From assembly GCA_902800305.1 (NCBI GenBank), contig CADCDP010000001.1:124001-188000 (forward strand): a stretch of 64,000 bases of DNA, given 5' to 3'. This DNA is from an uncultured Bacteroidales bacterium (GTDB lineage: Bacteria > Bacteroidota > Bacteroidia > Bacteroidales > Bacteroidaceae). The stretch's first letter is position 1. The number at the start of each line of letters is the position of its first letter. The notes beneath the pieces are model-generated. The model saw only the letters and a program-made list of their open reading frames with translations. It was not told the origin of the DNA and did no database searches. Both the position numbers and the translations under genes were made by a program. This document shows, in pieces, positions 5,513-39,707 of the stretch.

Positions 5513-5566
5513 TATTGATGATATCATGGGAAGGGCATCTTGTGCCCGTGTGAGTTGTGGCATAAA

Positions 5567-15031: not shown

Positions 15032-15113
15032 GTAAAGTTTAAAGGTTAGAGGTTAAAGTTTAAAGACCATGCAGCTTGTAAAGTTTACTGTGTAGAGTTT
15101 AATGTTTAAAGAC
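15032..15113 (+). repeat. Degenerate heptad repeat spacer with decoy start codon
   Basis: The gap between the 1917-residue gene and lipoprotein 4 consists largely of imperfect 7-base units of the type TTAAAGT/TTAGAGG. Within it AAAGACCATGCAGCTTGTAA (ATG at 15069) closely resembles the true start region of the tip-like gene at 16722; here it encodes only an eight-codon frame. See the similar spacer at 16633-16735. Confidence 0.75.
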
Positions 15114-15131
15114 AGTAAAAACCAAACAAAG

Positions 15132-20142: not shown

Positions 20143-21807
20143 TCACCATTGGTCTGTCCAGCTACGAGGGTCGAATACAACGGTGATGCTTTCGGGGCCT
20201 TTCACCTTGTCGTCGCCTGGCATCAGTTCGTCGAGGAAAGCGTAGCAATAGATGAAACCGCTTTCCCATTTTAACTGCATGTTGAGCATGTTGATGGTCA
20301 CACGGGCAGAGACATCGTTGTTGTTTGTGTCCTTGCCTTTGGCGGTGATGACGATGTGTGGCACGTCTTCGTCCTTGAGCACCTGTGGCACTGCCATGAT
20401 GATGTTGCCAGGGAAGTAGTTGTAGTGCTTCGTGTCGTTGTCGGGGTCTTCTGTCTCTTCTGTTAGCTGATAGCCCAACGTGTTATCGCCTTCTCCAAAG
20501 GAACCATTCTTATTGTCGTCGTTCACATTTTCAAAGAAGCCGTACATGTATTGATCGTTCAGCATCACTCGCTCACCGTCTTGGAAAGTGAACCAATAGG
20601 GATTCATGATGTAGTGATTCACGGTGGCAGAACCGAGTGTCTCGGCATTGGTGTAGTTGAGGGTGGCATTACCGCTTGCGTCATATTCGGGTGTAAAGGT
20701 GCATTCCGTCTTGATGTTATTGAACGACATTGAATAGGTGATGTCGGCCATTAACGTCTCATCCACATCAGTAATGGTGGTGCGTGACCAGCGGACAGTC
20801 TCACCTTTCTTTTCATAGCTGTCCAACCATTCCGTGTCATCAGGAATAGGTTCGCCTTCCACAGCATCATGAGCTACTCCCCATGCATCCACAATCTGCT
20901 TCGTTTCATCTGCAGCTTCTTCCGCTGTTACTCTGCGAATCTTGTCGTCTGCAGCATTATCTACAGCATACACAATCTTGTCAGTTCCTCGGATAAACGC
21001 ATACAGCCTCACTTGTGCCAGTAAATGGTGGAAGACGAAAGGCACGGGTTTAGGGGAATAGGTGTTCACAGCCGTGCCCACCAATGGATAGGCATCGCGG
21101 TTGCAGTCGGTCACGATGTCGCTTATCATGAAGTCGCTCTGTTGTGCTGCATCGGGGTGCATGGTGAACTTCATGCTATCCATACCTTTGCCCTTGCCCT
21201 GACTTGCTGCCGAGATGCTGATGCCGTAAGCACCTGGGTCTGCCGTCTCGTTATAGGGGTAGTAAGCCCAGAAAGTGCAGTACTCATGTTGTGTAGCATC
21301 ACTTTCCAGCAGGTTGTTGGGCCAGAAGCGGAGTGGCGTATATTCCAAAGTATTCGTTCCACGGGAAGAAGGTTCAAGAATCTTGGCTTTCTGGTTGTAA
21401 AGCAGATTAGCGGAGTAGTAGTCTTGTAGCGTGGCTGTTTCCTCATCGGTAGGTGATGCCTTCTCAGACAAGTCCACAAGTTCATTCCACTTGTTTTGCC
21501 CAGTGTAGCATCCAAACACCCCCACATAATACTCTTTGGTGGTTTTCTCCACTGTACCTTCTTCATTGGCACGCCAATAATCACGCATTTTAGTTTCGGG
21601 TAGCGTGTACTCATTCAGGTTCACGATGGAACCATCGGCACGGGTGTCTTGCACCATCCGACTACTCGACACCGTAGCTGTGAAGCTGATGCCTTCTGCC
21701 TCTTCTTCATGCTTGGGGGTGAAGTCGTCCCAGTGGTCGGCACAGGAGGCGAGTACCAGCAACGCCACGCCCCCACACACATTACCTATTTTTATTCTTA
21801 TTTTCAT
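20143..21807 (-). CDS. Fimbrillin-family lipoprotein 6
   Basis: 554 residues with lipobox LLVLASC (Cys22). Family markers in weaker form: CTFWAYYPYNETA, SDFMISDIV and FHHLLAQVRLYA. Processing-type T-R-A at residues 55-57 (VQDTRAD), 34 residues after the Cys. It is transcribed toward the + strand operon and lies 80 bases downstream of the giant gene on the same strand, so the two probably form a separate transcription unit. This repeats the pairing of fimbrillin-type lipoprotein and giant secreted protein seen on the + strand. Confidence 0.82.
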   Translation of the reverse strand: MKIRIKIGNVCGGVALLVLASCADHWDDFTPKHEEEAEGISFTATVSSSRMVQDTRADGSIVNLNEYTLPETKMRDYWRANEEGTVEKTTKEYYVGVFGCYTGQNKWNELVDLSEKASPTDEETATLQDYYSANLLYNQKAKILEPSSRGTNTLEYTPLRFWPNNLLESDATQHEYCTFWAYYPYNETADPGAYGISISAASQGKGKGMDSMKFTMHPDAAQQSDFMISDIVTDCNRDAYPLVGTAVNTYSPKPVPFVFHHLLAQVRLYAFIRGTDKIVYAVDNAADDKIRRVTAEEAADETKQIVDAWGVAHDAVEGEPIPDDTEWLDSYEKKGETVRWSRTTITDVDETLMADITYSMSFNNIKTECTFTPEYDASGNATLNYTNAETLGSATVNHYIMNPYWFTFQDGERVMLNDQYMYGFFENVNDDNKNGSFGEGDNTLGYQLTEETEDPDNDTKHYNYFPGNIIMAVPQVLKDEDVPHIVITAKGKDTNNNDVSARVTINMLNMQLKWESGFIYCYAFLDELMPGDDKVKGPESITVVFDPRSWTDQW

Positions 21808-21887: not shown

Positions 21888-24800
21888 CTATTTCACCACC
21901 ACCTTCTTATGCCCGAAGATATACACACCTTTGGGCAAACCAGGGTTGTTCTGGCGGAGTGTCTGCGGAGTCTCGTGGGTAGCCACTTTGCGGCCGGAAA
22001 GGTCATAGACATCGCATGGCCAAGGAGTCCTTTCGGTTATCGTATCTTCAATGTCCTTGTCTTCTTCGAAGTCGTAGTCTTCCTCGTCGAAGATGGCCAC
22101 GATGTGCGGCTTAGCTCCACCGCCTGGGGCTGTGTAGTTATAGATATAGTATGCTTTGTTGTGGTACACATAGCGGTTGTCGCGCTGAGCATCGGTGGCT
22201 GAGCGAGCATCAGCCTCATAAGCATTGTCATTTTCACGTGCCCAATTCTCGTTGGTGTACCAACCGACACGCTTTGTGTAGTCATACTCGTGTGTACCGT
22301 GTGGATCAGCGAATGGCAGACCGAATACCATCACACGATTTTCCGTGTTATCAGGCTTTTGTATCAAGTCTGATGGCTCCGAAAGTGTCTTCTCTAGATA
22401 CTCACCCTTCAGCAGTATCTTCGATTTATCGACGCTCTTGGCTTCGTCGTAAGGTAGGTAGAGGTCCACATAGTGCTTGGTGGCATAGGGGGATTTATCC
22501 TGATTCTTCAGCTCGACAGAGCCTGTGTTGTTGGAACGGATAACCACAGGCCAAGTAGCCGGAATGTACTGTGGGTTACCCATGTTATTGAATTGGCTTA
22601 CGGCTTGCATCGTGACACTCTGATTGCCCGTTTCGCCCTTGGGCATCGTCATGGTGAAGGCCACATCCACGGTCTTACCCAATCGGGTGTCGAAAGGCAC
22701 ATAGAGTGTTCCGTAATAGTAGGAATCATCTGCTCCAGCAGCATTTTTGCCACCCTTCTGTACTTCCACACGCAACGGCATCTGGTTGTAAGGCCAAGCG
22801 GTCTTCGTGCCCACAGGCTGGAGCAGCCACTTAGTATCTTGGATGCCGTTCTCACCGTCGGAAACGTAGTGGTCGCCTATTTCCTCCATCTCGTTGTTGG
22901 TGTGGTTGGTGATGCGATAGCGGTGGTTCGGGTCGATACAGATGTAGTTTGTCTGTATGTTTTCTGCCACGATGTCATCCCAGCCACTCAACGTTGCCCC
23001 CGAACCGTTCGTCTCGCCAATTGCATACTTGCGTGTGCGGATGGTGAAGGCGGTGCCACCGACATCTTCCAGACGGAACTTGTCGTCGAACCCTTCGTTT
23101 CCTGATATCGAAGAGAAGTCTGCATTGTCTGAAAGTTCCGTCTTTCCGAAGGTTGCATCGACGCCCTCCGTACCGCCTGCACGTGCCCAAAGCTTCAGCC
23201 CTTGGGTGTGGATGCTGTAGCGCGTGTACTTCTCTGTATTAGGTGTGGCATCCACAAACTGGAAGATGCTCGATGGGTCGTATTCGGCGGGCAGAATCTC
23301 GATGTTGCCACGCATGGCCTGATGGTCAGTCAAGTCGCGGTTTGTTCCTGCTGCTGCTATCTTATCCCTCAACTGTCCGAAGGTGTGGAGGGTCGAGTGC
23401 TCTTGGTCGGTCTCGAAGAAATGGAGCCAGCGGCCTCCATTGTTGTTCGGGTCGAGTGCATCGGTTTTCTCACTCTCGAAGCGATAGCCACTGATATAGC
23501 GTGGACCTACGATGCCCTTCTCATTGGTTCCATCACCCTTCAGGTCGTTGCCGTCAATGTCGAGTGCCTTCTGCGAGAACGCACGGATGCGATAATAGCC
23601 AGGCTTCATGTTGACGAGGTTGGTGGACTCAAAGGTCATCGGCAAGAGGGATGGTTCAGGACGTGCATCCCCTTCTGCCACTTCAGCACCTGTATTATCC
23701 TTAAACGTACCACTATACACTAACTCACGAGCCTGATTCAGCACTCGATATTCGCGTGGCAGCGTTGGGTCGTTCACATACTCTCCCAGACGGTTATACA
23801 GTTCCTTGTTGGCGAAGGTGTTAGCTTTCGCGGGGTCGAGACCACCCACATAGCCAGCCCTGTCGAAGTATGGCCACAACTGCTCGGCAGAAGTGAACAA
23901 TCGCCAGTTGGCATCGGGATTGCCGCGTAGGGTTCTGGCCGATGCGCTGGTGAGCGACGTGGTGTTTCCCGTGGTGTTGTGTACCATGTAGTAGCTCACA
24001 AACTCCGTGTCGTCGTTGTCGGTCCAAGCTGAGGTGGGGTGCATGAGGAAGGAACTTGGGTAGTCGCCTGTGAACATCTCATAGACGGCGTTAGTGGCTC
24101 CGTCGGTTGCCACGTCGTTACCCTTCAGACTGTGTACCACCTTTTTTCTGTTGAACGAAGTGCCGACAGCAGTGTTGGCTTTGCTCGTGTAGGTCGCTTG
24201 ATACATGGGCACTTCTCCTGGTACATTGTTAGACTCCATGAAAGTGTTGCCGTTGTTGTCAAGCAAGTCATTATTTGTCTTGTTCTTGCCCTTCGGCAGT
24301 TCTCCCTTGGTGGTCATAGCCACATCGTCCCAACCCGTACCGTTGATGGTGGCATAGCGCGAACGGAGCACGAAACCGTAGGGGTCACCTTCGGGAGCCC
24401 AAAGGTAGTTATTGGTGTAGTGCTCGGTGTGGTCGAGTCGGGCACCGATACCGTCCTTGTAGGTGAAGTTCAGCAAACCGTCCTGTTTATTGTTGGTCAT
24501 CATCTGGTACCATGCCGTGGTGTTGCGCCCCTTGTCGGCAAAGCGGAACTGCTCGGGGTTCACCTCATAGACCACATCGATAATGACTTTGCGGTTGTAG
24601 TGGCAGTCTTCCAGCTTCTCCAAAATGGTACCCTGTAGTGCCAATGCTCGGTCGTAGCCGCTGGGTTGCTTCTTGTCCACACCATTCACTGTTTCCTTGA
24701 CATCGGTTTCCTTGGCGGTATCGTCCCAATCAGCCCATTGGTTCTTGTCGAAGATGGACACCCACTTGATGCCGTATGCCTGTTTCGTCACATCATTTTC

Positions 24801-27800
24801 GATGAAGGTGGTGGGGATGGGATTCGTACCGTCGTTGGACTTGTAGGTCTGTCCAGCGTAGTAGTCGTCGTTGATGGTGATGGTGCCGCCATAGTAGCTG
24901 TATGTGTTACCCTCTACGATGGTGCAGGTCAGCCCTGTCCATGTTTCGTCTGCCACTTGGAAAGCTGGGTGTTCCGTGTCGGTCACAGAACGTTGAACGT
25001 CGCGCTGATACAGACGGTAGGTGCAGAACTGTCGGCGCATATACCAAGGTACAGCTGGACGGTTGCCGATACCCACACGACTAACGTTGTAGTCTGCCAC
25101 AGGATAGCTGACGATATCGCGCAACGAGGTTGTTTTCAGCAGGGTCTTGATATCGGTTTCTTTGCTCGTTTCCCATGCTGTTGGTGTTAAGAGACCAGGA
25201 ACATTGGTTTTGGTACTGTAGGTCGAAATGTAGTAATCCTTGTTGTGCTGGCGGTAAATGCCTTGATACATCAGGTATTCCAGCAGATGGTCTTTAACGA
25301 TTTGGCGAGCTTCAGCCTTGGTCACATTGTTGAATCCGCTCACCACAGGGTCGTTGCCCGTTACGCCCGAAGGCAGGTCATCACTGCTTAATGTTTGCAA
25401 ATAGTCCTCCTCTGCATCGAGCGAATGTTGATGGGCAATGATGAGGTGGTATTGCAGGATGTCGGCATATTTGATCAGGTTAGCCAGGAAGAACGGCTTG
25501 GCACCGCCCGTGTCGAGCGTGTTGCCCGTTGGGTCGTAAAGTGCAGTACCAGTACCCATGGTCGTGAGGTTCTTATCGGATGTACTTGAGTAGTCGAAGC
25601 TGACACACTTGATGACCTCGCCATTCTCATCAACGAGTGAGAGGTAGGTGTTACCGTTCTTGTCGATGGCCAGCGTAAAGTTCTGTGCTTCTTCCTCGAT
25701 GATGGACGTGGTGACATTCTTGCCCTCCACGATGACCGTTGCGCCTCGGTTCTTCAGGAACTGGGCATAGTTCTTCATGTTGAAGCTGTAAGGGTCTCCG
25801 ATGAGGCTCCACTTCTGTCGGTCGTTCTCACTCTGCGCACCTTCGTCGGCGTATGTCGGCTTCTGGTCGGTGTGGGTGTTCACGTAGGCAGTCGGATAAT
25901 AAGGAGTTGGGTCGTTGGAGACAATCTTCGTCTTCTTCTCATACCGATATACTTCATCGATGATGTGACCGTCGGCATTATAGACATAGTGGTCGAACAC
26001 GGGTTCGTAGTATTCCACCTCCACGTTGGTTCCTTTATAATACTGTGTCCACTGGTAGTAGGTGTTCAACCAAGTGTAGTCCTCCGTCTCGGCATCCAAC
26101 TCGGTAGTGAAGAACGGCGACACGTTGTCCTGGACGGTATAGACGTAGGTGAGTAGGAGGTTGATGCTCGATTCTTTTTCTAACTCACGGAAAGTTTTTC
26201 CATTCTTGATTTTCTCATTGCTGTCGAAATCCGTAATCTCGATGCCTCGGTTATCGTTGTCCACGTAGTCGAGATAGCACTTGTAGGTACAGCCGTAGCG
26301 CTTCAGGCTGATGGGCAGCGATTCGGTAGCGTTGCCGTAACGTAGTTCCAGATTCTCCCGCTTGATGCGCAGCACGAATGGACTTTGGTCGGTGACGATT
26401 TGTACATCGGCATCGAAGCAGTCATTGTCGGCACCATCGTTGTCTTTCGCCACAGCGGTGCGGATGGTGAGCAGCTGTTGCTTCACGCCCATATCGGCCA
26501 TGGTTTGCGAATAGTTTACGGCATTGACGTTGTTGCTGTAGGTGTCGAAGTCGTTAAGCGAGTAAGGCACCATCTCAAAGTAGCTGGTGTAGTTGGAAGT
26601 TCCATTAGGATAAGCCTTTGACACCAGTCGCCAATAGTTGTTGGTCTGGTTGATGATGCCTGGGCCGGTCTGGTCGTTGCTGTAGTCGCCGATTAGTCCA
26701 CCTGCGCCATTGTCTGGCGAGGCTTGCTTGAGTGAGGCGGTACGCAGGAAGTAGTTGCTGTCGCTATTACCCATCTGACTGAGGTTGCTGCCCGTCTTGG
26801 TCATCTGGAGCGAGAAGTGTGTGTTGATATCGCCTTCGACCAACGCAGCCGTTCCCGTCGAGGTCTTTTCTGTAGCGGCATCATACGTTGTTTGGTCAAT
26901 CAGGCTGGTAGTCCAAATGACACTGTCGGCAGGTTCGGTTTTATTGTAATCCAGAATGGTTGCCTTCGTGACAGCCAACCACATCGGGTCGGTGTTGGCG
27001 GTGCCGTCCTCCGAGCGTCGGCGGTTCAGGATGGTGAAGTCGTAGGGGTCGCCGATGAAGGCCCAGTGCAGACCTTTCAGACCATCGTTCCATCCGTTGG
27101 CTTCGTTGTTCCAGCCTGTCTTACCGTTGCTCATGGCACGTCGGTAGTTGCTCACCAGTGTGGTTTGGTTCTCGACGGCAGGCGAACCGCCCACATTGGT
27201 CTTGTCATAGTAGAGCCAGTTTCCATTGCCCACCATCATGTCAATCCATTGCGGGCTGCTGGGATCGGTGGTGAAGAGGTGTACCTGCTTGCCCTCCTCG
27301 GTGTTGGTGAGGTCGCTGACAGTGTAAGTGACACGGAACTTATACGAGGCGCGATGCTGGGTGCCATCGACAAACACAACGCTGTTGTGCTCTGTGCAGT
27401 CCTCCATGTTGTAAGCCGCTACGTCTTTGCTCTTATCGAGCACGAAGGGGAAACTGCCGCTGTTCCATGTGGAATTATTATTTTTCTGATACTCTAGATT
27501 ACCATATTCCACGAACTTGCGTTGCAGGTGGCGCGGCACTTCGTAGATGGTCTCGCCTACACCGAAATACTCGCTCAACTCCTCTTTCACCACAGGGTTG
27601 CCACTATAATTATCCTTATAGGCACTAAAGTAAACCTTTGACGGTTGGATGAGGCGGATGACCGTGGAATCGTTGTTGGCTTCGTGGTAGCCGATGTACT
27701 TACCCGAAAGATGACGTTCGTTGTGCGTGCGGTAGTTCAGGTTGATGTCGTAAGTACCACGCCGGTTTTCGTTGGCTTGTCGGTACTCACGCTTCAAACC

Positions 27801-30800
27801 GTCGTGAGTTAGGTAGTAGTACACGTTGCGGTAGCCTAATATCTGGTTGTCGGCGCGGAAGCGCAGGGCGAAGCCATCCTCCACGTCGGTGGCCGATGGC
27901 ACCACTTCCCAATAGAAGTCGTCGTAGTAAGGTTTACCGTAGTGGTTGTTGTCGATGGTTCCCAGCTCTTCACCATTCTCGTCGGTAAAGGTTACCTTTT
28001 TCCGGTTATCGGTGATGTTTTTGTCGGGCACACGCAGGTGTACGCAGTCCACTACAAACTGGAATTGGCTTTCCGTCGGGTCGAAGCGGGCTAAGTTAGC
28101 GGCATTGGTACAGTTGGGCTTATCATTCTCAAACTCGCTGTTGGTGTTGTAAACTTGTACACGATAAGGGTCGCCTACGAAGTACCACTTCAAGTCTTCC
28201 GGCACTGATGTCATGCGGTTGGTTGTGGTGCGGTACTGGCAGTTGTTATACACCTTTTTTTCGTCGCCCACGAATTGGTTGGTGCTTTCGTCCCATATCA
28301 TCTTCTCCGTCACGCCATGTAGGGTACCTACCTGTGGTTGGAAGGTGGCTCTCTCGTCGAAGTAGGCATGATGACCAGTGTTGTAGCCTTCTAATTGGTT
28401 GCCCAGCATCTTCGGATTGGGGAAGTCCATAAAATAGACATGGTCGTTGTTGGACTTCATTTGTGCCACCTGTGCCTTTGTGGGTCGCTCCTTCAAGAAG
28501 ATGTCGCTCGTCACCTCATAGCTGGCATAGACGGTTTGTGGGCTAACTTCCTCGTTATTATCGTTCCAGTAAATATAAACAGGGCGTCCCGTTTCGTCGT
28601 AGATGGGTTGTCCATCACTGTCACTGATCTTTTGGTTTCCGCGTGTAGGGCCTTCTATCACCGTGTAGTTTTCATTGGCATGGCGGAAGTCATCATTGTA
28701 AAACGTGTAGTTGCAGAAGGCGCGGCGCACTTCAAAGGGGATAGACGACTGGTCTTGGGAATCAATCACGTCGCCAGCCACGAACATACGGTCTTCGGTG
28801 GAGAAATACATACGCGAAATGCCTGTGGTCATGGCATTCAGTGCTTCTTCATCCTTCGAATTGTGGTCATGCAGATAAGTGGCCACCTCATCATCGCGTC
28901 GTATCATCAATCGCACATCCTCGTACTTCTTTGGCTCGTAGGGTAGCAATTGGATATTGTAATCCAATGCGGTGAAGTTGTCGTTGCGTGGTTGCAACAT
29001 CACCTCGTTGGCATTATCTCTGTTGCTGCGCTTCATCTGCCAGTATAGCAACTGCCCGTTATCGTCGGTCGGCTCAAAGTTGCCATCTGTGTCGGTTCTT
29101 CCAGCCACAAGGCTAAATGTATGGTCGGCATTGCTACCTTTGCCTTCAGCCATGCCCCAGCTGTACTTAGGTGGCGAAGTGTTGGTATAGTCGGGTGTGT
29201 AAGCCACCACCTCCGTTGACGATAGTCGGTGCCAACTGGTCAGATGTTCACGGTGTGTAGTGACGGTCGTTTCCTCGGTAATGTTGTTATATTTCTCTTC
29301 TATTACAGCACTGGCATTATAGATATAAAGGTCGTAGGGGTCGCCAGCAAAGGCCCACAACCAGCTTTTCTCTTCGAATGCCGCATGGTCATTCTCTCGG
29401 TACGCCTCGGCACAACGGCTGTAGTCCCATTTGTTCACGTTGTTATCGCGATTATAGTGAGGTTGCGCCCCATTTTGTAGCCATGCGATACGTCCGTTGT
29501 CCTTCCGTTTCAGGAAATATTGCGAACCGGCTGAGAAGTCGTCGTTGGTATTGAGCACCATGAAGTAGAGGAAATCCTTTCGGGCACGGGTGCCATTAGT
29601 GAAAATCTTCTCTGTGAGCTTCTCGTAACTCGACAAATTGAAAAAGATGTCTGTCCAACCTCCAGTGTTATTCAACAGCGCATTGACGGTAGCTTTGTCG
29701 GTTGCCATGAGGTTGAAGGGGATGCCATCCTCCACGCCGTTGGTTTCATGTCCCTTGGGTAACACTTCGTACTCCACATAGATGTCCACCCACGTATTGG
29801 CCTTGTCATCATCGGTCAATGCGTCAATGCCATCGATAAGAGGGTAGAAGAGCAGACCGTTAGCATCTATTGCGTCGGTGATGTCGTAACGGGTGACAGT
29901 CTCTGTGTTGTCTTCGTACTGGGCTTGTGTGCGCGGCAGTCCATCCTCTCCTAAATAGTAATAGTAGTGAGGATAGACGCAGTACTTGCGTTTTATGCTT
30001 TCCGGAAGTTCAAGCACTGAGTTAACCGCTGTGGTAGGCTTCTCTGTCACATATTCGCGCTCCTCAATGTGGGTAGTCAGGTGGAATCGGTAATTGTGAT
30101 AAGTGGCGGGGGAGAAAACTAAACGCAGGCCTCCGCCTGGACCTGTGGCAAGGTTATAATGTTTAGGCTCCCATTCTCCATTATTAGTAATAGAGTTGAT
30201 ACCGAAATAAGTGTACTCCTTCGCTCCTGATCCACTACGGGAGTCTCTCCACGTTTCAGGGGTAACACCCAGAATACGGTAGTCACCATCAGTATGCCCC
30301 AGTAGCATATAACGCTGTGTAAACCAATACTCTGCGCTTGAATAGTCTTCCTTAGCTAACCCCATAGGGTATGTTTCTATGCCAATATAACGGCGATAAA
30401 TATTCTGCACCACATAGTCAGGATACTGCACACTTCGAATCTTTACATAATAAGGATCACTATTTTCCAAACGGAACAAGAACTGCGAAGAGGAAACATC
30501 AACAGGATTGTCTGTTCGATTTAAAAAATTTCCTGCACCATTATTTCTCATATAGTAACGGTGCTTACCATTAGGATTATAAATTTGGTATTTCACAGTT
30601 CCTCCTAAATCCAGTCCGTTGACCTGTGGCACATATTGATAACGTACAAAAACTAATGTACCATCTGTTTCAGGCAGAAGTGTTAGTTGATTATCTACAT
30701 TAATAGGGGCGAAGACATCTACATACTGACCATCGGCTGTCACATTAACTTGACTCTCATCATAATATATGAAGTTATCTATGCTGATGAGAGGTGTACG

Positions 30801-33800
30801 TATCTCTTCTGGTATCAGCGGTTTGTCACCAGACTCCTGGGTCACTTTCTGACGGATGGACTCACACAGGCTGTTGTTGATAACCACGTATGTATAGCTA
30901 TACTTAAATGGCACCAGTTCCACCTTGATGCTGGTCATGTCCTTGGCATAAATGGCACCACGTACTAACTCTGGCTCGGAGAGATTATTTACGTCGCGTC
31001 CCAAGTAGGCAAAAATGTTATCCTGAATCACGTCGCCTGTGGCGCACATCAGCTCATAGTTGCCGTCGGTGCGGTCAAGCAGAATAAACGACTGAAACTC
31101 GCCCTCACCAGCAGTAGCTGCCATCTTCAATGCGTTCTGGCCAGCAGCACAGCTGACGGCAGTCAGCGACATACCATCATCAAGCGTACGCAAGCGGATG
31201 TCGTAGGGATCTATTTGCGGCGAAGTATAAGAGTTGCCTGAGGCTAAGTTGCCATCCACATGCCATTTGCCGTCATTGTCGGTGTAGTTCGTGGTGGTCT
31301 GGTTGCTCGCGCCAGTATTGACTTCGGTGACAGTGACCGTCGTGCCTGAGTAGACGGCGTAATACTGGCCACCTATCTTCATGTTGTATTTCTTTTGACC
31401 CACCAGATTGGGTTGCATGATTCGACTCTCATCGAAGTCGTAGGTCACATAGACCACGTTCGACCCTTCACCATCGATAACGGGTAGAAGACGCATGGGC
31501 ATGGTGAAATCTTCGTCCTGCCAATAGTGGAACTCATTCACCATCGGACTGCTGATGATGGCAGGTAGCATAGGAACCTCGCCAGCATGACCAGCAGCCG
31601 TAGCTTGGATAGCCAATTGACCTGAGAGATTGTACACTTTGTAGATGTACTCATTGCCAGGTTGCGAGAGGAGCACTTGTACATTGGCACTACCTGTCTG
31701 TGTGTCATTGCGGCGTAACAGCGAGGGTTGTGTGTCGCTGTCGTCGAGGGCGGCGTAGGCCAGTATATTGTCGGTAATACTACTGCCCGAAGTGGCCACC
31801 AGTTCAAAGGGGCCGCTGGCAGATGTCCCCACAAGAATATAGGTCAGTTGAGCGGTGCTGTTAGAAGAAGCATAGAGTCCCATTGTGCTCTTCGTGGTGC
31901 TGGTATAATCGAAGGTAGAACCCACATACTGTGAAGCATCACCCTTGTTCACCAAATGTATGGCGTATGGATCCACATCGTTTGCTCCTACGGCATCAAA
32001 ACCCCATAGGTAATCGGAACCATTGGCTTGGGCCACGGTTGGTTGGTCGCTACTATTGGCCATAAGGCTTGTGGTACCAGTGTCGGCGTCGGTTTCAAGG
32101 GTAAGGTAGTTGCCGCCTATTTGAAGGTTGTAGAAGTTGTTGCTATAGAGGTCAATGGCATCAATCGTGGAGGTGTCATATTGGTAGGTCACGTAGATAT
32201 CGTCATCATCGTGAGGGATGGAAGTCATCTCATTACTTACAGCACCCGTGGCAGGGTCATAGTCGTGCCAGTAGTGCCAGCCTGTGGCCAACGGACTTTT
32301 GATTGCGGCAGGAACTTCAAGCGAAGCTGCTGACAGTTCGTCGCTTGTGGCCTCCCATGTGTACTGAATGGCCTCGCGCCCCGAAAGGTCTATGATGTGG
32401 TAGGTCAGCTTTGTTTTCACTGGCAGCAAGCGCACCTGCACCTCAGCCATGCCACTTAAAAAGACTGGATGGTTTGGGGTGCTTCCCGCACCAAGCAATG
32501 CTATGCCATTATCATTTCGCCCCAAAAAGAACTGGCGATCGTCTATGGGCTGGCTGTCTGTTCCTAAAGCCGTTTCACCAGTAGCTGCCATCAACTCCAA
32601 ACGTCCACTCTGACCGTTCATCAAGACAAAGCGATTTACTGTTCCAATACCAGAGCTTAGGGTCAAAGCGTTGGCAACATTATCTTCATGAAATGACAGA
32701 GTCTCTATATCCGCCAAGGCAGAAGCACTCATCAACTTCACATCATACGGGTCTGTGGCTGTAATAGTCCATTCAAAAGTGGGAACATTCAAATGATCAG
32801 GAGCAGTAACTGCTGTGACACCACCCTCATCCTCTTTTGCATACAGTCCGTTTACCCACAGATTATACTTCTTAGTGCCAGTTATGTCAATGTCAAGGTT
32901 AGTGGTATTGGCGATGTAATCACGTACGTAAATTGTCCTATTGTCTGTCATCAATGTCTCTGCATTCAACGACGTAATCTCTGTTCCACCAGTCTTTTCT
33001 GTATAATAACTAAAATTTGTTGCGTATGGACTCCGAATGGCATCGGGAATTACAGGAGGTAATCCCACTGCCCCTACTACTGTAGTACGTATCGCCTCTT
33101 GTCCCCTCTTGTTGATGACAACATAAGTAAACGTACCGATCTTTTGTTCTGTCAACTTCAACATATTAGGTTCACCGTCAACGCCTCCATTTTCCCAAGC
33201 ACCAAGAGCAATTTGATTAACACCTCCAGTTGTTGCATCATGTCGATTGTTAGTGGCCATTTCAAAATAGTAAGCATTTCTTGTTGCTTCGCCGCATCCC
33301 ATCAGTTTGTAGTCATAGTCCGTATAAGTCTTCAGGCTAGGCAGCAGGACAAACGACTTTACGGGGTCTGCATCCGTACCATTGAAAGTGAAAGAACGTT
33401 GATAGCCGGATTCATAGTTGATATCGTTAGATACTGTTATGTTCTTTGCAGGATAGGCCACACTATAAACTTTAATGTCATAAGGATCGTTGCCCTTGAA
33501 CTGCCACAAATACGCATTTGTGGTAAGCACTGAAGCATTGTCAGCAACATTTACGGCAGCCCAAAGATTATTATTACTGAAATATGCCGTCTTTACATAG
33601 TTTACATCTTTCGTTCGTGCTGTAATATTATAAGCCTTCTGCCCTGTCAAATCTATTGGCGACGATACACTGGCTTGTGTATAATAGACGTAAATATTGG
33701 GAGAGGTGGCATCACGGATGTCAGAGAGTGGCACAGCACCATCCTTTAATACATAAGTGTCACCGCTTACGGTAAAAGCAGAAGCATCGTAATAGCTGAA

Positions 33801-36800
33801 ACCTCCATCCGTGATGGCCTGACTCTTGATGATAGCAGGGATTTCGGGAGGGGTGACACCTGTTGCTGCGCGTGGTTCAATAGCACGAATGGCCACCTTA
33901 CCGTTTAGATTTATCACATTGTAAATATATGCTGGTTGTATGTGAGTTTGTATGATGGTGGATTTATGCGTATAAGAAGAACCTTGTCCCATTCTTAATC
34001 TCACCTTACCTGCACTGTCGCAATAAATATACTGTAACTTAGTTATATCATCGGGCCTTCTCACCGCAATTTCATAAAATCCAGGATTCCCACCCAAAAT
34101 CATAAAATCACTTAATGGATAATTTGCATTTGGCTCAAATCTGACATCAATGTCTCCATTATCTTTTTTACCTGTCAGCAAATTTCTACTTTCATGAAGA
34201 TTCCATATTTTCACAGCATAAGGGTCGTATTGTGAATTTGCATTAGTACCAAGCAGTTTGAACATATACCATCGTGCCTGATAGCTGGTTTTGATATTCG
34301 CATACAACCAACGCTCACTATTGGATTGTTCACCTAACAAGTGCTGTGTATCACTATTCACGTGGAGTTCATAATACTGAGAGCCGTCAAGTTTGATTTC
34401 CGTATCCATCGGATTCTTTGCCGTATAGGTCACGAAAATCTTGCCTGTCACTCCTTCAATTGAGGAGCATGGTATTGTACAGTCAGCATCGGTCCAATAA
34501 TAATATGTTTCAACCAATGGGCTACGCATATATTCTGGCAAGTCTGGCTGTACACCTGTAGGACTGGACGTCGCACCCTCCAAGGCTGGCACACCAGAGA
34601 GATCATAAATAAAATAGGTGTATGGCCCCACAGTCTGTTCTGTCAATGCAATGCGCACGGGATTGGCGGCACCATCCTCATGCTGTGTGTCAGCATCACG
34701 CACAAGACAAGCATTGCTACTGCTATCCAACGTAAGATAGCCGAAGGGTTGTTCACCCATCTGGTCGCTGTTTTGTACAAGCAGTTCCAACGGTGAATCA
34801 TAAGTGCCTTGTCCAGTCAGGATAAAGCCCTGCTTGGCACCTCCTATAGTGAGTAGCTGCCCGTAGTTGGTAGAACCGAGAGGCATTGTGTTGTCGTAGA
34901 ACGAGTAAAGGCTTACATCGTAGGGGTCGTAGTTATGGGCTACGATACGGAAGAGGTTCTTGAATTGTGTCTCAGTACCTGTGATGCTGGTCTCAGTGCC
35001 GAGGGTAGCATTGCTGTTGTTGTAGCTGAGCCATGAGGTGCCAACCAGCTGCACATTGAACAACTTCTCGCCATCGAGTCCTAAAGAACGGAGAGTAGAG
35101 ATGTTAAGGTCGTACAGTACGTAGATGTCGTTGATTCCATCAGCAGACGATAGAGTGGTAAGCGATGTGTGTACCTCCCCCGTTGTCAGCTTATAAATGC
35201 CTATAGCAGCTTTGGTTGCATCAAAATCTGTATATTGATAATATCGGAAATTGGTAGCTCCAAGAGCACGAAGTGAAGCTGGAAGGTTTACTGTATAAGA
35301 AGCAGACTTCTCAACCTTGTCTTTGTATGTGAATACATTTTCTCCTTTTTGGTTGATAATATGATAGACGTATCCTTCCTCAATCGGGTGGAATTGAACT
35401 TGAAGGTGTGCATGGGTGGGACTATAGTCTGCTCCTCTTAACAATTGCAAGCTGTTTCCGTCCGAATAGCCCATATAGACCAAGTTACCGTCTGCTGTCT
35501 CTGCCCCTAATGCTGCGGCAAGAGTATAGCAGCCCTCGCTATTGCCATAGAGAAGTGCAAACGGCGTAACGTTAGAATCGTCATAGAGCTGCAACTGGCT
35601 TCCAGATATGGTGGGTGTGGTTGTACCCAGGTAATTGGATGCATTGCCTGACGGATTTAGCAGAATGGCATAGGGGTCGTCATTTGCATGTAACTGCCAA
35701 GTATAATGATCTATCTCGTCTCTTGGAGTGGAAGTAGTCGCCACTTGTCCACTAGGATTAATATATGCATACTGGTTGTTGACATTAAGTTGATAATAGG
35801 CTGCTCCAGACAAGTCTATTACGTCGGTTTCTGTTATGTAGCGCACATAGATGTCGATAGGAGTGTTTTCGTCGGCAGATGTGGGTAGTAAGGTAATCTG
35901 ACTGGTCGGAGCATTGCCGTCCGTCCAGCTGCTCCAAAAAGTGTAAGATTCCACAGCAGGTGACTTCAGTATGTTTGGAATCATATCTACGGTGATATCG
36001 TCTCCCATACCAAGAGGCGTATTGTTGAGTGCCTGCAACGCCTCATGACCTGCATTATTAATGATATGGAAACGATACTTTCGTTTCGGTAGTTCATCTA
36101 ACCATGCCTTGCTATTATTGTCATTATATTGGTTGCTGTTATATCGCAATTCCGACAAATAATACAAGAAATAATCCGTGGTGCCATGAACGCGAAGCCT
36201 AAACTGACTGTCAGTATAACTATCTCCATCTATCAGTTCATAGTTGATGATTGGATTAGTTGCACGAGCGTAGAACCAAGGCTTCTTTTCGCCAGTTGAG
36301 CCACTTGGTACACCAAGGAATAAACCATCGCCAGCTGCCTTATTGATGATTTGTATATCATACGGATCTCCTATGAAAGCAAAATGATAATTGTGGTTGA
36401 CCGACGAACTCTCCTTCGAAATATGTGACACTTTGCTGCTACCAGCATCACGATACATATACCCATCGTCTTGAAGATGCAAGGCATACCAATGGGCTGT
36501 GGCGTAGTCGGTACTGATTTCAAAGGGCAACAGGCTGTTTCCTTCCACATCAGTAGTATAGTACTTCACGTAAAGATCTGTCGCCCCATTGGACTTTGCT
36601 CCATTTAAATAAGCCTCGGCATAAGTCGTCACTTTGGAACTAACCGAAAAATCTGCGCTGGTATAGAATTCATATCGGCAGAACTTACGCCATAGATTGC
36701 TTAATTCACCTGAATTAGCAATTGCTAAAGCCGTATTGGAGTTAGAAGGTGCGCTAGTAAAGGCCGTCAGTTCTTCATTGTTAATGTGGGTGTTCAGATG

Positions 36801-39707
36801 GAATCGGAATAGCGTCTGGTCGGTTGGTGTTATTTTCATCAAATACTTTTCATCTGACGCCCTATATGTATTATTACTAATGACAACAAATTCCATCTTA
36901 GGGTCATTACTCCACATTGCCCTGACATAGTTTTCTGTGCCAAACACGGCATTGCGTGTCAACGTCAGAATGTTGAACCACCCCTCAACAGGGCTGTTAA
37001 CTATAATACACGAATAACTGTCGCTTTTCTTCATTTCACATTGATACCAACCATAGGAGGAATAAGTTGTCACATTTCCGCTATATGAAAGGAAATACAG
37101 GTCACCATCGTTTTTTGATACAAACGTTCCAAGGTTTGTAATCTTGATATCGTAAGGATCATTATTTGCAGAATAGAATCCCCACATATAGGGAGAGGTG
37201 TTGATTTCGCTGGTCGAATTTGTTGCTGAAGTACTTGTGTTATTAGTACCTGAAGTAAAAAAATAGCGGCCATTCTTACCCTTTTCCTCCATCTGATACC
37301 ATACGGAGGCATCGAGCACGGGCAAATGGCTTGGACGTGAGGCTGGGTCATAATGGTAGCCCACATATACATTCTTATCTTTGTCTGTTACCTGAGAGAC
37401 AAGGGTGATTGCTGTAGAAGCAGGAGTCTCGCCACGGGAATACTTTGCCGCATCCTCCATTGAATTGAAGAATTGGTAGTTTGTTCCTTCATTGGCAATA
37501 TAGGGCGAAGTGATGGCTGTAGGCATGGACAGCGAGGTGCCCGTTGGCTCTAAACGGGCTATAGCCTCCCCCCCCTGCTTGTTGACAACATGATAGACAA
37601 CATTGAAAGGTGTATTACTAAAATTACCTTTGACACTGATGTCATTGATTCCTTGCCCCACCACGCTATTCTCTGTCTGTGTGTCTCCTGTTGCTGTAGT
37701 ACCATTGTAGTAAGACAGTCCTCCTGCAGGTGATGGAATGTAGTCTGGAAGTGTGTACTTTCGTAACCTAGTTTCGACTGTGTATATTTCTTCATTACTA
37801 CTATTGAATACGTGAATAGTAAGAGGGTCAATGGCATCAATGAAAATTTGTACTTCCTCATCATCATATTTAAACACCTTGTATGTATTATCTGTATTGT
37901 ATTTATCATCTGTCTTGGTAACATCTTTTGTCAGATAGAGTCCTGCCTGATTGGCATGACACCCAGCACTGGGATAGAGTCCCCAGACATATTGTGCGCC
38001 ATGTTGATTAAGCCATGGAAGCATCAGGAGATAATAATCTCCTGTCGTAGCCCCTTCAAGCAGCATCCACGTTTTAACATATCCATTTCCAGTAGATGTG
38101 TTGTTTATCTTCCAATACCAGTCATTCTTCATATCAGATTTTGGACTCTGGCTTCTTGACGGTCGCGTGAGAGTAGCCCAGTTTGTGCGATTATTATCGT
38201 TACTATTCTCATATTGACTATAGATACTTACATTATAAGGATCATTGCCATAAAAACGGAAAACAGCACTATTGGCGTATTTCCCAGAATACGCTTCTTC
38301 CCATGTGTGTTTCAAGTTACTCAAATCATTTTCAGCATTGCTAATGTATCGCCAGCTGTTGGGGTTACTGTTGATGCGCATACGGTAGTTTGTAGTTCCA
38401 TTAAGGTCAATGTCACTTTGTAGCGGATCGTAGGTATATGTGACCACAATATCCGTCTCTTGAGGGGACAGCGCATGAATGTTCATACTTTCCTCTCCGC
38501 TTTTCAAAGTATATGTATAGCCAATATTGTCGATGGCTGTTTTTAGTTCCGTCTTTGTATAATCATTATTGGCCGCAGCCCAGCTGGGCGCGGCAGAAGC
38601 CACACGGTCGAATTGATTCAAAGTATAGAACTTGTAGTTGGCATCGGGAATAAGGTTTGACTTTAAATGTGTTTTCTCGAAAGCAACCATAGGTGCTGTA
38701 CCTCCTTTCACGGATATGGTATCAACCATAGCTATGGTTCCGTCCAAACGTTTTACATAGAATGTGTATTTTGTGTAGATTGGTGGGAAACTGACAAAAA
38801 GATTGTTGTCTAGACCTACATAGTCATCAGCGTTACCAGCATACAAGGCAATGTTGCCAACACCGCCGTTAGCATTCCAATACCCTTGACGGGCAATGAT
38901 GCCTTTGCCTTGCAACTTTAGTTGGAAAGCGTACGTGTGGTCTTTGCCTGTGCGGGCAGTCCATAATGAATTTCCTTCTGAATAATTCTGAATGAGCACC
39001 CAACTACCATCATAGGTAGCACACTTGCCTGTTGCCGCTCGGTTGATGACCTTCATCTTGTAGGGGTCACCGATAAAGGCGAACTGGGCATTCTCTGCCG
39101 TCTTGTTACTTTCTGCCGTACTGTTATCAAGAGTCTCTATACGACCTGTTGCCAAATAACGAAGATACCGCTTATTGTTGTTCACCATTAGGTTATACCA
39201 GCGCGGATTCTCTTCTGTAGAGAAGATTAGTCCCGTTGCATTCTTCAATGCCACAGGGTCGAAGGTGTAGGGAATATAAACATCGGTCATTCCCAGTGTA
39301 TAGTTTGTTACCTCCAAGGTACATGCCGCATCTGAGTAATATTTTGACGAAAGGGTACACCCGATGCGCTCTAAACGACTACGATTTGGCAAACTGAGCG
39401 CCCCTTCCGAATCATACGTCACCTCCACATCTTCCACCGATTCGCCAGAAGAATTTACGATGTGGTAAACAAGAGGGGCTGTTTGGGCCATTATCTGGGT
39501 ACGTGGAGTCCAAGTCTCGTCATACTGATTTTTATTATGCCCTCCCCAATATGTAGTAAGATTTGAACTATAATTATTTGGACGATTATCCGTTGCCCAC
39601 GCCCCATTCACTTCTCCCATAAGCATCAGTAAAAGCAGAATGGTGGTGCGGAGGAGTTGGCTGCGTAAGGTTGTTACATTCATCTCTCGGCTTGATTTAT
39701 TCATCAT
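21888..39707 (-). CDS. Giant modular secreted protein, about 5,940 residues
   Basis: One uninterrupted frame of about 18 kb. I chose ATG 39707 because it directly precedes a signal peptide (LRTTILLLLMLMGEVNGAWA) and follows GATAAGAAG; frames open from 39893, and ATG 39764 or 39683 are alternatives. The body repeats a module: an opening strand such as YVVINKRGQEAIR or YHIIDLSGREAIQ, then LPxxIxSP and an aromatic YY-D segment, then xIYVxYxYD, then DLxGxxxYNLxVN, then DPYDxKIxN, then FxLLxxxxGxYEL. D-P-Y motifs occur 17 times (minus strand, near 39060, 38235, 37155, 36360, 35672, 34922, 34222, 33483, 32748, 31968, 31205, 30453, 29337, 28165, 27045, 25793 and 24382). The C-terminus (CDVYDLSGRKVATHE, then LPKGVYIFGHKKVVVK) is a type A sorting-like tail. 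Likely a surface adhesin or filament; no catalytic motif was recognised. Confidence 0.78.
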   Translation of the reverse strand: MMNKSSREMNVTTLRSQLLRTTILLLLMLMGEVNGAWATDNRPNNYSSNLTTYWGGHNKNQYDETWTPRTQIMAQTAPLVYHIVNSSGESVEDVEVTYDSEGALSLPNRSRLERIGCTLSSKYYSDAACTLEVTNYTLGMTDVYIPYTFDPVALKNATGLIFSTEENPRWYNLMVNNNKRYLRYLATGRIETLDNSTAESNKTAENAQFAFIGDPYKMKVINRAATGKCATYDGSWVLIQNYSEGNSLWTARTGKDHTYAFQLKLQGKGIIARQGYWNANGGVGNIALYAGNADDYVGLDNNLFVSFPPIYTKYTFYVKRLDGTIAMVDTISVKGGTAPMVAFEKTHLKSNLIPDANYKFYTLNQFDRVASAAPSWAAANNDYTKTELKTAIDNIGYTYTLKSGEESMNIHALSPQETDIVVTYTYDPLQSDIDLNGTTNYRMRINSNPNSWRYISNAENDLSNLKHTWEEAYSGKYANSAVFRFYGNDPYNVSIYSQYENSNDNNRTNWATLTRPSRSQSPKSDMKNDWYWKINNTSTGNGYVKTWMLLEGATTGDYYLLMLPWLNQHGAQYVWGLYPSAGCHANQAGLYLTKDVTKTDDKYNTDNTYKVFKYDDEEVQIFIDAIDPLTIHVFNSSNEEIYTVETRLRKYTLPDYIPSPAGGLSYYNGTTATGDTQTENSVVGQGINDISVKGNFSNTPFNVVYHVVNKQGGEAIARLEPTGTSLSMPTAITSPYIANEGTNYQFFNSMEDAAKYSRGETPASTAITLVSQVTDKDKNVYVGYHYDPASRPSHLPVLDASVWYQMEEKGKNGRYFFTSGTNNTSTSATNSTSEINTSPYMWGFYSANNDPYDIKITNLGTFVSKNDGDLYFLSYSGNVTTYSSYGWYQCEMKKSDSYSCIIVNSPVEGWFNILTLTRNAVFGTENYVRAMWSNDPKMEFVVISNNTYRASDEKYLMKITPTDQTLFRFHLNTHINNEELTAFTSAPSNSNTALAIANSGELSNLWRKFCRYEFYTSADFSVSSKVTTYAEAYLNGAKSNGATDLYVKYYTTDVEGNSLLPFEISTDYATAHWYALHLQDDGYMYRDAGSSKVSHISKESSSVNHNYHFAFIGDPYDIQIINKAAGDGLFLGVPSGSTGEKKPWFYARATNPIINYELIDGDSYTDSQFRLRVHGTTDYFLYYLSELRYNSNQYNDNNSKAWLDELPKRKYRFHIINNAGHEALQALNNTPLGMGDDITVDMIPNILKSPAVESYTFWSSWTDGNAPTSQITLLPTSADENTPIDIYVRYITETDVIDLSGAAYYQLNVNNQYAYINPSGQVATTSTPRDEIDHYTWQLHANDDPYAILLNPSGNASNYLGTTTPTISGSQLQLYDDSNVTPFALLYGNSEGCYTLAAALGAETADGNLVYMGYSDGNSLQLLRGADYSPTHAHLQVQFHPIEEGYVYHIINQKGENVFTYKDKVEKSASYTVNLPASLRALGATNFRYYQYTDFDATKAAIGIYKLTTGEVHTSLTTLSSADGINDIYVLYDLNISTLRSLGLDGEKLFNVQLVGTSWLSYNNSNATLGTETSITGTETQFKNLFRIVAHNYDPYDVSLYSFYDNTMPLGSTNYGQLLTIGGAKQGFILTGQGTYDSPLELLVQNSDQMGEQPFGYLTLDSSSNACLVRDADTQHEDGAANPVRIALTEQTVGPYTYFIYDLSGVPALEGATSSPTGVQPDLPEYMRSPLVETYYYWTDADCTIPCSSIEGVTGKIFVTYTAKNPMDTEIKLDGSQYYELHVNSDTQHLLGEQSNSERWLYANIKTSYQARWYMFKLLGTNANSQYDPYAVKIWNLHESRNLLTGKKDNGDIDVRFEPNANYPLSDFMILGGNPGFYEIAVRRPDDITKLQYIYCDSAGKVRLRMGQGSSYTHKSTIIQTHIQPAYIYNVINLNGKVAIRAIEPRAATGVTPPEIPAIIKSQAITDGGFSYYDASAFTVSGDTYVLKDGAVPLSDIRDATSPNIYVYYTQASVSSPIDLTGQKAYNITARTKDVNYVKTAYFSNNNLWAAVNVADNASVLTTNAYLWQFKGNDPYDIKVYSVAYPAKNITVSNDINYESGYQRSFTFNGTDADPVKSFVLLPSLKTYTDYDYKLMGCGEATRNAYYFEMATNNRHDATTGGVNQIALGAWENGGVDGEPNMLKLTEQKIGTFTYVVINKRGQEAIRTTVVGAVGLPPVIPDAIRSPYATNFSYYTEKTGGTEITSLNAETLMTDNRTIYVRDYIANTTNLDIDITGTKKYNLWVNGLYAKEDEGGVTAVTAPDHLNVPTFEWTITATDPYDVKLMSASALADIETLSFHEDNVANALTLSSGIGTVNRFVLMNGQSGRLELMAATGETALGTDSQPIDDRQFFLGRNDNGIALLGAGSTPNHPVFLSGMAEVQVRLLPVKTKLTYHIIDLSGREAIQYTWEATSDELSAASLEVPAAIKSPLATGWHYWHDYDPATGAVSNEMTSIPHDDDDIYVTYQYDTSTIDAIDLYSNNFYNLQIGGNYLTLETDADTGTTSLMANSSDQPTVAQANGSDYLWGFDAVGANDVDPYAIHLVNKGDASQYVGSTFDYTSTTKSTMGLYASSNSTAQLTYILVGTSASGPFELVATSGSSITDNILAYAALDDSDTQPSLLRRNDTQTGSANVQVLLSQPGNEYIYKVYNLSGQLAIQATAAGHAGEVPMLPAIISSPMVNEFHYWQDEDFTMPMRLLPVIDGEGSNVVYVTYDFDESRIMQPNLVGQKKYNMKIGGQYYAVYSGTTVTVTEVNTGASNQTTTNYTDNDGKWHVDGNLASGNSYTSPQIDPYDIRLRTLDDGMSLTAVSCAAGQNALKMAATAGEGEFQSFILLDRTDGNYELMCATGDVIQDNIFAYLGRDVNNLSEPELVRGAIYAKDMTSIKVELVPFKYSYTYVVINNSLCESIRQKVTQESGDKPLIPEEIRTPLISIDNFIYYDESQVNVTADGQYVDVFAPINVDNQLTLLPETDGTLVFVRYQYVPQVNGLDLGGTVKYQIYNPNGKHRYYMRNNGAGNFLNRTDNPVDVSSSQFLFRLENSDPYYVKIRSVQYPDYVVQNIYRRYIGIETYPMGLAKEDYSSAEYWFTQRYMLLGHTDGDYRILGVTPETWRDSRSGSGAKEYTYFGINSITNNGEWEPKHYNLATGPGGGLRLVFSPATYHNYRFHLTTHIEEREYVTEKPTTAVNSVLELPESIKRKYCVYPHYYYYLGEDGLPRTQAQYEDNTETVTRYDITDAIDANGLLFYPLIDGIDALTDDDKANTWVDIYVEYEVLPKGHETNGVEDGIPFNLMATDKATVNALLNNTGGWTDIFFNLSSYEKLTEKIFTNGTRARKDFLYFMVLNTNDDFSAGSQYFLKRKDNGRIAWLQNGAQPHYNRDNNVNKWDYSRCAEAYRENDHAAFEEKSWLWAFAGDPYDLYIYNASAVIEEKYNNITEETTVTTHREHLTSWHRLSSTEVVAYTPDYTNTSPPKYSWGMAEGKGSNADHTFSLVAGRTDTDGNFEPTDDNGQLLYWQMKRSNRDNANEVMLQPRNDNFTALDYNIQLLPYEPKKYEDVRLMIRRDDEVATYLHDHNSKDEEALNAMTTGISRMYFSTEDRMFVAGDVIDSQDQSSIPFEVRRAFCNYTFYNDDFRHANENYTVIEGPTRGNQKISDSDGQPIYDETGRPVYIYWNDNNEEVSPQTVYASYEVTSDIFLKERPTKAQVAQMKSNNDHVYFMDFPNPKMLGNQLEGYNTGHHAYFDERATFQPQVGTLHGVTEKMIWDESTNQFVGDEKKVYNNCQYRTTTNRMTSVPEDLKWYFVGDPYRVQVYNTNSEFENDKPNCTNAANLARFDPTESQFQFVVDCVHLRVPDKNITDNRKKVTFTDENGEELGTIDNNHYGKPYYDDFYWEVVPSATDVEDGFALRFRADNQILGYRNVYYYLTHDGLKREYRQANENRRGTYDINLNYRTHNERHLSGKYIGYHEANNDSTVIRLIQPSKVYFSAYKDNYSGNPVVKEELSEYFGVGETIYEVPRHLQRKFVEYGNLEYQKNNNSTWNSGSFPFVLDKSKDVAAYNMEDCTEHNSVVFVDGTQHRASYKFRVTYTVSDLTNTEEGKQVHLFTTDPSSPQWIDMMVGNGNWLYYDKTNVGGSPAVENQTTLVSNYRRAMSNGKTGWNNEANGWNDGLKGLHWAFIGDPYDFTILNRRRSEDGTANTDPMWLAVTKATILDYNKTEPADSVIWTTSLIDQTTYDAATEKTSTGTAALVEGDINTHFSLQMTKTGSNLSQMGNSDSNYFLRTASLKQASPDNGAGGLIGDYSNDQTGPGIINQTNNYWRLVSKAYPNGTSNYTSYFEMVPYSLNDFDTYSNNVNAVNYSQTMADMGVKQQLLTIRTAVAKDNDGADNDCFDADVQIVTDQSPFVLRIKRENLELRYGNATESLPISLKRYGCTYKCYLDYVDNDNRGIEITDFDSNEKIKNGKTFRELEKESSINLLLTYVYTVQDNVSPFFTTELDAETEDYTWLNTYYQWTQYYKGTNVEVEYYEPVFDHYVYNADGHIIDEVYRYEKKTKIVSNDPTPYYPTAYVNTHTDQKPTYADEGAQSENDRQKWSLIGDPYSFNMKNYAQFLKNRGATVIVEGKNVTTSIIEEEAQNFTLAIDKNGNTYLSLVDENGEVIKCVSFDYSSTSDKNLTTMGTGTALYDPTGNTLDTGGAKPFFLANLIKYADILQYHLIIAHQHSLDAEEDYLQTLSSDDLPSGVTGNDPVVSGFNNVTKAEARQIVKDHLLEYLMYQGIYRQHNKDYYISTYSTKTNVPGLLTPTAWETSKETDIKTLLKTTSLRDIVSYPVADYNVSRVGIGNRPAVPWYMRRQFCTYRLYQRDVQRSVTDTEHPAFQVADETWTGLTCTIVEGNTYSYYGGTITINDDYYAGQTYKSNDGTNPIPTTFIENDVTKQAYGIKWVSIFDKNQWADWDDTAKETDVKETVNGVDKKQPSGYDRALALQGTILEKLEDCHYNRKVIIDVVYEVNPEQFRFADKGRNTTAWYQMMTNNKQDGLLNFTYKDGIGARLDHTEHYTNNYLWAPEGDPYGFVLRSRYATINGTGWDDVAMTTKGELPKGKNKTNNDLLDNNGNTFMESNNVPGEVPMYQATYTSKANTAVGTSFNRKKVVHSLKGNDVATDGATNAVYEMFTGDYPSSFLMHPTSAWTDNDDTEFVSYYMVHNTTGNTTSLTSASARTLRGNPDANWRLFTSAEQLWPYFDRAGYVGGLDPAKANTFANKELYNRLGEYVNDPTLPREYRVLNQARELVYSGTFKDNTGAEVAEGDARPEPSLLPMTFESTNLVNMKPGYYRIRAFSQKALDIDGNDLKGDGTNEKGIVGPRYISGYRFESEKTDALDPNNNGGRWLHFFETDQEHSTLHTFGQLRDKIAAAGTNRDLTDHQAMRGNIEILPAEYDPSSIFQFVDATPNTEKYTRYSIHTQGLKLWARAGGTEGVDATFGKTELSDNADFSSISGNEGFDDKFRLEDVGGTAFTIRTRKYAIGETNGSGATLSGWDDIVAENIQTNYICIDPNHRYRITNHTNNEMEEIGDHYVSDGENGIQDTKWLLQPVGTKTAWPYNQMPLRVEVQKGGKNAAGADDSYYYGTLYVPFDTRLGKTVDVAFTMTMPKGETGNQSVTMQAVSQFNNMGNPQYIPATWPVVIRSNNTGSVELKNQDKSPYATKHYVDLYLPYDEAKSVDKSKILLKGEYLEKTLSEPSDLIQKPDNTENRVMVFGLPFADPHGTHEYDYTKRVGWYTNENWARENDNAYEADARSATDAQRDNRYVYHNKAYYIYNYTAPGGGAKPHIVAIFDEEDYDFEEDKDIEDTITERTPWPCDVYDLSGRKVATHETPQTLRQNNPGLPKGVYIFGHKKVVVK

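What the first reader, a model, noticed from the sequence alone, without database searches (positions are those of the whole stretch)
21888..39707. An 18 kb gene for a roughly 5,940-residue secreted modular protein
Seen: one uninterrupted frame with signal peptide, at least 17 D-P-Y motifs and a sorting-like C-terminal tail. Between about 37.2 and 30.5 kb the motifs are 690-795 nt apart (nine intervals); in the C-terminal part they are 1.12-1.41 kb apart. At least a dozen opening strands of the type [YF]-x-[VI]-[IV]-[ND]-x-x-G precede them. I cannot assign the module to a known family with certainty, and a single-chain protein of this size made only of such units would be exceptional.
Basis: seen in the sequence. 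Interest (0 to 1): 0.85.

Follow-up and report, generated by a model that had tools for sequence, protein, structure and literature searches.

The report
Giant secreted β-trefoil surface protein
A ruminant-gut-type Bacteroidales bacterium encodes a single 668-kDa secreted surface protein whose N-terminal half is a string of about twelve units, each with a β-trefoil fold; it sits beside fimbria-like genes and recurs, divergent at its outer end, in at least a dozen related gut bacteria, so it is most likely a giant adhesin, though its binding partner is unknown.

Summary
Window 21888-39707 (-) is one open frame of 5,939 aa (668 kDa) with 17 D-P-Y motifs (shuffles average 1.2) at the stated spacings. 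It is a real gene: frames of 5,216-5,904 aa with no internal stop occur in other assemblies, dN/dS is 0.23 between two of them, and it holds no DNA repeats. Each ~250-aa N-terminal unit is a short β-domain (A) plus a β-trefoil (B): AlphaFold2 pLDDT 87, Z about 15 to HA17, HA33 and ricin-B-like lectins. The (QxW)3 lectin signature is absent. About twelve units are detectable by profile. The last 2,700 aa are different and keep only the DPY core. The tail is a type IX secretion (T9SS) type A sorting signal, and the genome has the translocon and sortase. Known domain libraries match nothing else. The gene sits in a conserved locus with fimbrillin-like lipoproteins: 8 of about 10 Mfa_like ORFs in this genome lie at the two giant-gene loci. 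The C-terminal half is conserved and the N-terminal half diverges fast, as expected if the tail is at the cell and the modules point outwards. Most likely it is a T9SS-displayed giant adhesin, working like SprB or Mfa5 but built from different modules. Ligand and pilus coupling are inferred.

The parts
21888..39707 (-). giant gene, 5,939 aa, 668 kDa, pI 4.8, T9SS cargo
   Evidence: homologues; purifying selection between two homologues
39594..39707 (-). putative signal peptide (by inspection; start codon uncertain)
   Evidence: sequence only
36078..39470 (-). divergent N-terminal modules 1-4 (DPY at residues 214, 489, 850, 1114)
   Evidence: hhalign probability 94, 99, 96 and 92 to the trefoil profile; these four were not in the profile
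30102..36077 (-). regular modules 5-12, ~235-265 aa each, A domain + beta-trefoil B domain
   Evidence: structure
30900..31421 (-). beta-trefoil domain of the modelled unit (residues 2763-2936)
   Evidence: AlphaFold2 pLDDT 86.9, pTM 0.87; Z 15.2 to HA17 4lo8_F, 134 residues, 2.6 A
31422..31649 (-). A domain of the modelled unit: four strands with a short helix, fold not assigned
21891..30101 (-). C-terminal ~2,700 aa, five more DPY cores in longer, different units; the conserved half of the protein
   Evidence: AlphaFold2 failed for the last 940 aa (pLDDT 44)
21918..22016 (-). T9SS type A sorting domain (Por_Secre_tail)
   Evidence: tail conserved in the aligned homologues
20143..21807 (-). 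554-aa fimbrillin-like lipoprotein, co-directional partner; invariant lipobox-position Cys and C-terminal TDQW
   Evidence: homologue beside the giant gene in 12 of 13 loci; Mfa_like_1 in 10 of 13 members; invariant residues
16722..19997 (+). 1,091-aa convergent lipoprotein-like protein with invariant Cys19; contains an Mfa_like_1 match
15102..16625 (+). 507-aa Mfa_like_1 fimbrillin
9275..15028 (+). 1,917-aa large secreted-looking protein of the same locus, tail resembling a sorting signal (by eye)
   Evidence: homologues in 8 related loci; no Pfam or NCBIfam hit
5540..7956 (+). two Mfa_like_1 fimbrillin-like proteins (513 and 291 aa; the first below the curated cut-off)

Best explanation
A giant cell-surface adhesin of a Prevotella-like gut Bacteroidales bacterium. 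It is exported by Sec and then by the type IX system, its C-terminal tail is cut off by the PorU sortase, and it stays on the outer surface by that end. About twelve tandem [A + beta-trefoil] units form the outward, fast-evolving binding part, and the conserved C-terminal 2,700 aa form the base. It is made together with a neighbouring set of fimbrillin-like lipoproteins, with which it probably shares a surface structure. Shown: the open frame, the module repeat, the trefoil fold (by prediction), the sorting tail, the secretion genes and the conserved locus. Inferred: surface display, adhesion, the nature of the ligand, and physical coupling to fimbriae.
For: T9SS type A tail above cut-off; SprA/Sov over the family cut-off in 44 of 45 genus genomes and PorU sortase in this one. 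Trefoil fold pLDDT 87 with Z about 15 to many solved trefoil lectins; independent weak RicinB_lectin_2 hints in 2 of 27 B domains. Five-gene neighbourhood conserved across divergent genomes; 8 of about 10 Mfa_like ORFs of the genome lie at the two giant loci. Base conserved (about 0.3-0.8 identity per 100 aa over residues 3400-5939) against a variable N-terminal half (0.07-0.3). Purifying selection in a homologue pair.
Against: No binding data. The (QxW)3 signature of ricin-type lectins is absent (1 QxW in 27 B domains). The beta-trefoil fold also serves non-lectins such as FGF1, which ranks equally in the searches. The C-terminal region has no confident model. No expression data.
Confidence: 0.7

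Rival explanations
1. The giant protein is the tip or accessory subunit of a type V (FimA/Mfa-like) fimbria, as Mfa5 is in Porphyromonas gingivalis, so the fimbrillins carry it rather than merely accompany it.
For: Mfa5 is the one Mfa protein found to depend on T9SS and is a tip protein in a fimbrillin operon (PMC7835359). Here a T9SS giant is tied to a fimbrillin-like lipoprotein in 12 of 13 loci, and the shorter giants of C24, G039, G042 C56 and G388 also sit beside an Mfa_like_1 gene.
Against: No vWA domain was found. Neighbourhood does not show contact. A type A tail could anchor the protein by itself.
Confidence: 0.35
2. The module array is a substrate-capture device for diet or mucus polysaccharide rather than an attachment device to a cell.
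For: Beta-trefoil fold shared with carbohydrate-binding modules such as that of exo-beta-1,3-galactanase 3vsf (Z 14.7); most named homologues come from rumen or other gut compartments.
Against: No catalytic domain was recognised in the chain; the neighbours read as fimbrial genes, not carbohydrate-active enzymes; fold does not show ligand.
Confidence: 0.25
3. Assembly join or chimeric open frame rather than one gene.
For: The genome is fragmented (70 contigs) and most named homologues are metagenome-assembled.
Against: Several other assemblies hold uninterrupted frames of 5,216-5,904 aa with the same order of parts; dN/dS 0.23 over 5,014 codons in a homologue pair; no DNA repeats long enough to mis-join.
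Confidence: 0.02

Closest known systems
SprB, Flavobacterium johnsoniae gliding adhesin (6,497 aa; PMC9870892)
   Same: giant single-chain surface adhesin of Bacteroidota whose secretion depends on T9SS; similar size
   Different: SprB sequence was not compared here; SprB works in gliding motility, whereas this one has fimbrillin neighbours and a type A tail (SprB's tail type is from general knowledge, a different one)
Mfa5 of the Porphyromonas gingivalis Mfa1 fimbria (1,228 aa; PMC7835359)
   Same: T9SS C-terminal domain, encoded in a fimbrillin cluster, modular
   Different: Mfa5 has vWA and Ig-like domains; none were found here; this protein is about five times longer and made of beta-trefoil units
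Ricin-B-type beta-trefoil lectins (HA33/HA17, MOA, CNL, MPL)
   Same: fold of the B domain, Z 14-15
   Different: no (QxW)3 signature, ~10% identity, a single conserved DPY hairpin, tandem alternation with an A domain

Membership tests
T9SS type A cargo | C-terminal Por_Secre_tail domain over the curated cut-off | tested here: met
   27.7 bits against 23
T9SS type A cargo | host encodes the T9SS translocon (SprA/Sov) and sortase (PorU) | tested here: met
T9SS type A cargo | N-terminal Sec signal peptide | tested here: inconclusive
   hydrophobic stretch by inspection only
T9SS type A cargo | T9SS-dependent secretion and tail removal | not testable with these tools
   needs mutants and proteomics
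Beta-trefoil fold (B domain) | three-fold beta-trefoil structure | tested here: met
   predicted model, Z up to 15.2 over 134 residues at 2.6 A
Ricin-type (QxW)3 lectin family | QxW motif in the trefoil subdomains | tested here: not met
   1 QxW in 27 B domains
Ricin-type (QxW)3 lectin family | profile match to a ricin-B Pfam family over its cut-off | tested here: inconclusive
   RicinB_lectin_2 reported in 2 of 27 members, best E 0.0056; cut-off not shown for those members
Mfa5-like fimbrial tip protein | encoded in a fimbrillin (Mfa_like_1) cluster and bearing a T9SS tail | tested here: met
Mfa5-like fimbrial tip protein | vWA domain | tested here: not met
   no Pfam match at E 1 in either half
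SprB gliding adhesin family | sequence homology to SprB and its CTD type | not tested
   no SprB sequence was compared

The most novel reading that the evidence does not exclude
A previously undescribed class of giant Bacteroidales appendage: a single-chain string of a dozen or more beta-trefoil receptor-binding units mounted on, or co-assembled with, a dedicated type V fimbria, with a conserved base and a quickly changing outer array.
Probability: 0.3. Interest if true: 0.7.

Novelty: new variant of a known kind. Interest (0 to 1): 0.52.

Why it matters
Giant T9SS adhesins are known mainly from SprB. This one supplies a second architecture in gut Bacteroidales, with a module whose fold predicts a binding surface, no entry in the domain libraries searched, and a dedicated fimbrillin locus. 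It makes two questions testable: what tandem trefoils on a commensal surface bind, and whether T9SS cargo and type V fimbrillins build one structure, as Mfa5 hints.

Tried and rejected
Assembly artefact: rejected. Known adhesin family by sequence: Pfam 0, NCBIfam only the sorting tail (plus a sub-cut-off match to a related tail model), PDB sequences 0 (only the N-terminal half was searched against the PDB). Profile searches with A and B domains against the PDB: nothing useful. Structure of the last 940 aa failed (pLDDT 44). Profiles of the partner proteins against the PDB gave nothing useful. A three-domain alignment (A3) misregistered and was dropped. In the related-locus scan with the first module alignment no stretch was conserved enough; the C-terminal alignment worked. 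Paper searches for trefoil plus T9SS adhesins or giant Prevotella surface proteins found nothing in the held library, which is not proof that none exists.

Full report
Observation. The minus-strand frame 21888-39893 is open for 6,001 codons; from the ATG at 39707 it gives 5,939 aa, 668 kDa, pI 4.8.

Modules. Eight regular units (residues 1211-3203) align at 20-30% identity and define a profile of 233 positions. Each unit is an A part (Y-x-[VI]-[IV]-N-x-x-G ... P ... [YF]-Y ... I-Y-V-x-Y) and a B part (Y-N-[LM] ... W-x-F-x-G-x-D-P-Y-D-[IV]). Profile-profile comparison places the four divergent N-terminal DPY units, which were not used to build the profile, in the same B family (probability 92-99). 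Of the last five DPY units, units 13 and 17 match at 94% and 71% over short stretches and the others only around the motif (24-39%), so the C-terminal 2,700 aa are a different kind of region.

Fold. An AlphaFold2 model of one unit from 32 aligned units has pLDDT 86.9 and pTM 0.87. Residues 77-250 are a beta-trefoil: Foldseek's best matches are HA17 and FGF1, and VIA-align gives Z 14-15 to HA17, HA33, MOA, CNL, MPL and a galactanase module. The (QxW)3 signature of ricin-type lectins is missing, so this is a trefoil but not a demonstrated member of that lectin family. The first ~75 residues (A) have four strands and a short helix; their fold was not separately tested.

Secretion. The C-terminus is a T9SS type A sorting domain over cut-off. 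The genome carries SprA/Sov and PorU and about a dozen other sorting-tail matches.

Relatives. Among 45 genomes of the genus, 9 have the module, in frames of 2,970 to 5,904 aa without stops besides the 6 k frame here. Sampling gives 7 of 251 in the family, 2 of 393 in the order and 1 of 395 (only this genome) in the phylum. A pattern scan of 84,980 species genomes finds 13 loci, all uncultured or metagenome-assembled Prevotellaceae/Bacteroidaceae or unnamed, most from ruminant or deer gut; some of these are the same genomes as the genus members above. Homologues are 31-39% identical to this one where aligned; identity is low in the N-terminal half and rises over the last 2,500 aa, up to 0.81 in the tail. 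Between two homologues dN/dS is 0.23.

Locus. Downstream lies a 554-aa lipoprotein-type protein whose homologue is beside the giant gene in 12 of 13 loci; convergent to it a 1,091-aa protein and a 507-aa Mfa_like_1 protein, found in all 10 loci with enough DNA, and a 1,917-aa protein, found in 8. The 554-aa family is Mfa_like_1 in 10 of 13 members, with an invariant lipobox-position Cys and an invariant C-terminal TDQW. In the whole genome about 10 ORFs carry Mfa_like_1 and 8 of them are at the two loci with giant genes (this one and a 3,490-aa paralogue on contig 24). The smaller giants of four other loci also sit next to an Mfa_like_1 gene.

Mechanism. With the sorting tail as the anchored end, the conserved C-terminal half would lie at the cell and the divergent trefoil array would point outward, as expected for an adhesin under changing selection. 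That is inference from conservation and from how T9SS type A cargo is anchored in general. Whether the fimbrillins carry the protein (as with Mfa5, PMC7835359) or only share its regulation is open.

Compared with what is known. SprB (6,497 aa, PMC9870892) shows that single-chain giant adhesins of this size exist in Bacteroidota, so the size is not without precedent. The tandem beta-trefoil build, the fimbrillin locus and the lack of any domain-library entry make this a new variant of that kind.

Noticed in passing
G000 contig C24:23719-34191 (L036): A second giant (3,490 aa) with the same modules and a run of Mfa_like_1 genes just upstream, in the same genome; next to it a further 3,170-aa ORF (C24:40326-49838).
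   Followed up: partly
G000:C1:98018-110134 and 113610-120308 (L073/L074): 4,038-aa and 2,232-aa ORFs, the first with a sorting tail; the 2,232-aa one is 60% identical over 2,143 aa to the C-terminal part of another genus member's module-bearing giant (G037), which ends in the same YGGGN-rich region.
   Followed up: partly
window 20143-21807: Every member of the 554-aa partner family ends in TDQW; shorter partner fimbrillins of other giants end in TEQW or AEQW. An invariant C-terminus suggests a functional end, perhaps a donor strand or docking motif.
   Followed up: partly
window 16722-19997: The 1,091-aa family has a conserved C-terminal YW-x-G-x-TKT-x-YDPCPPGF-x-VP motif and ends in [LP]-[IV]-RP, reminiscent of Fib_succ_major-type domains; Pfam scan by protein gave nothing, while a genome search found an Mfa_like_1 stretch inside it.
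   Followed up: partly
L044:13026-15906: In this relative the partner fimbrillin gene is inverted relative to the giant gene and a 360-aa ORF lies between; L043 lacks the partner in the DNA held.
   Followed up: no
G004 vs G005 giants (L029/L030 vs L031/L032), residues 2500-3000 of the G004 frame: This stretch is 91% identical with low synonymous divergence (dS 0.195) while the rest is 40-72%: looks like recent recombination between species within the gene.
   Followed up: no
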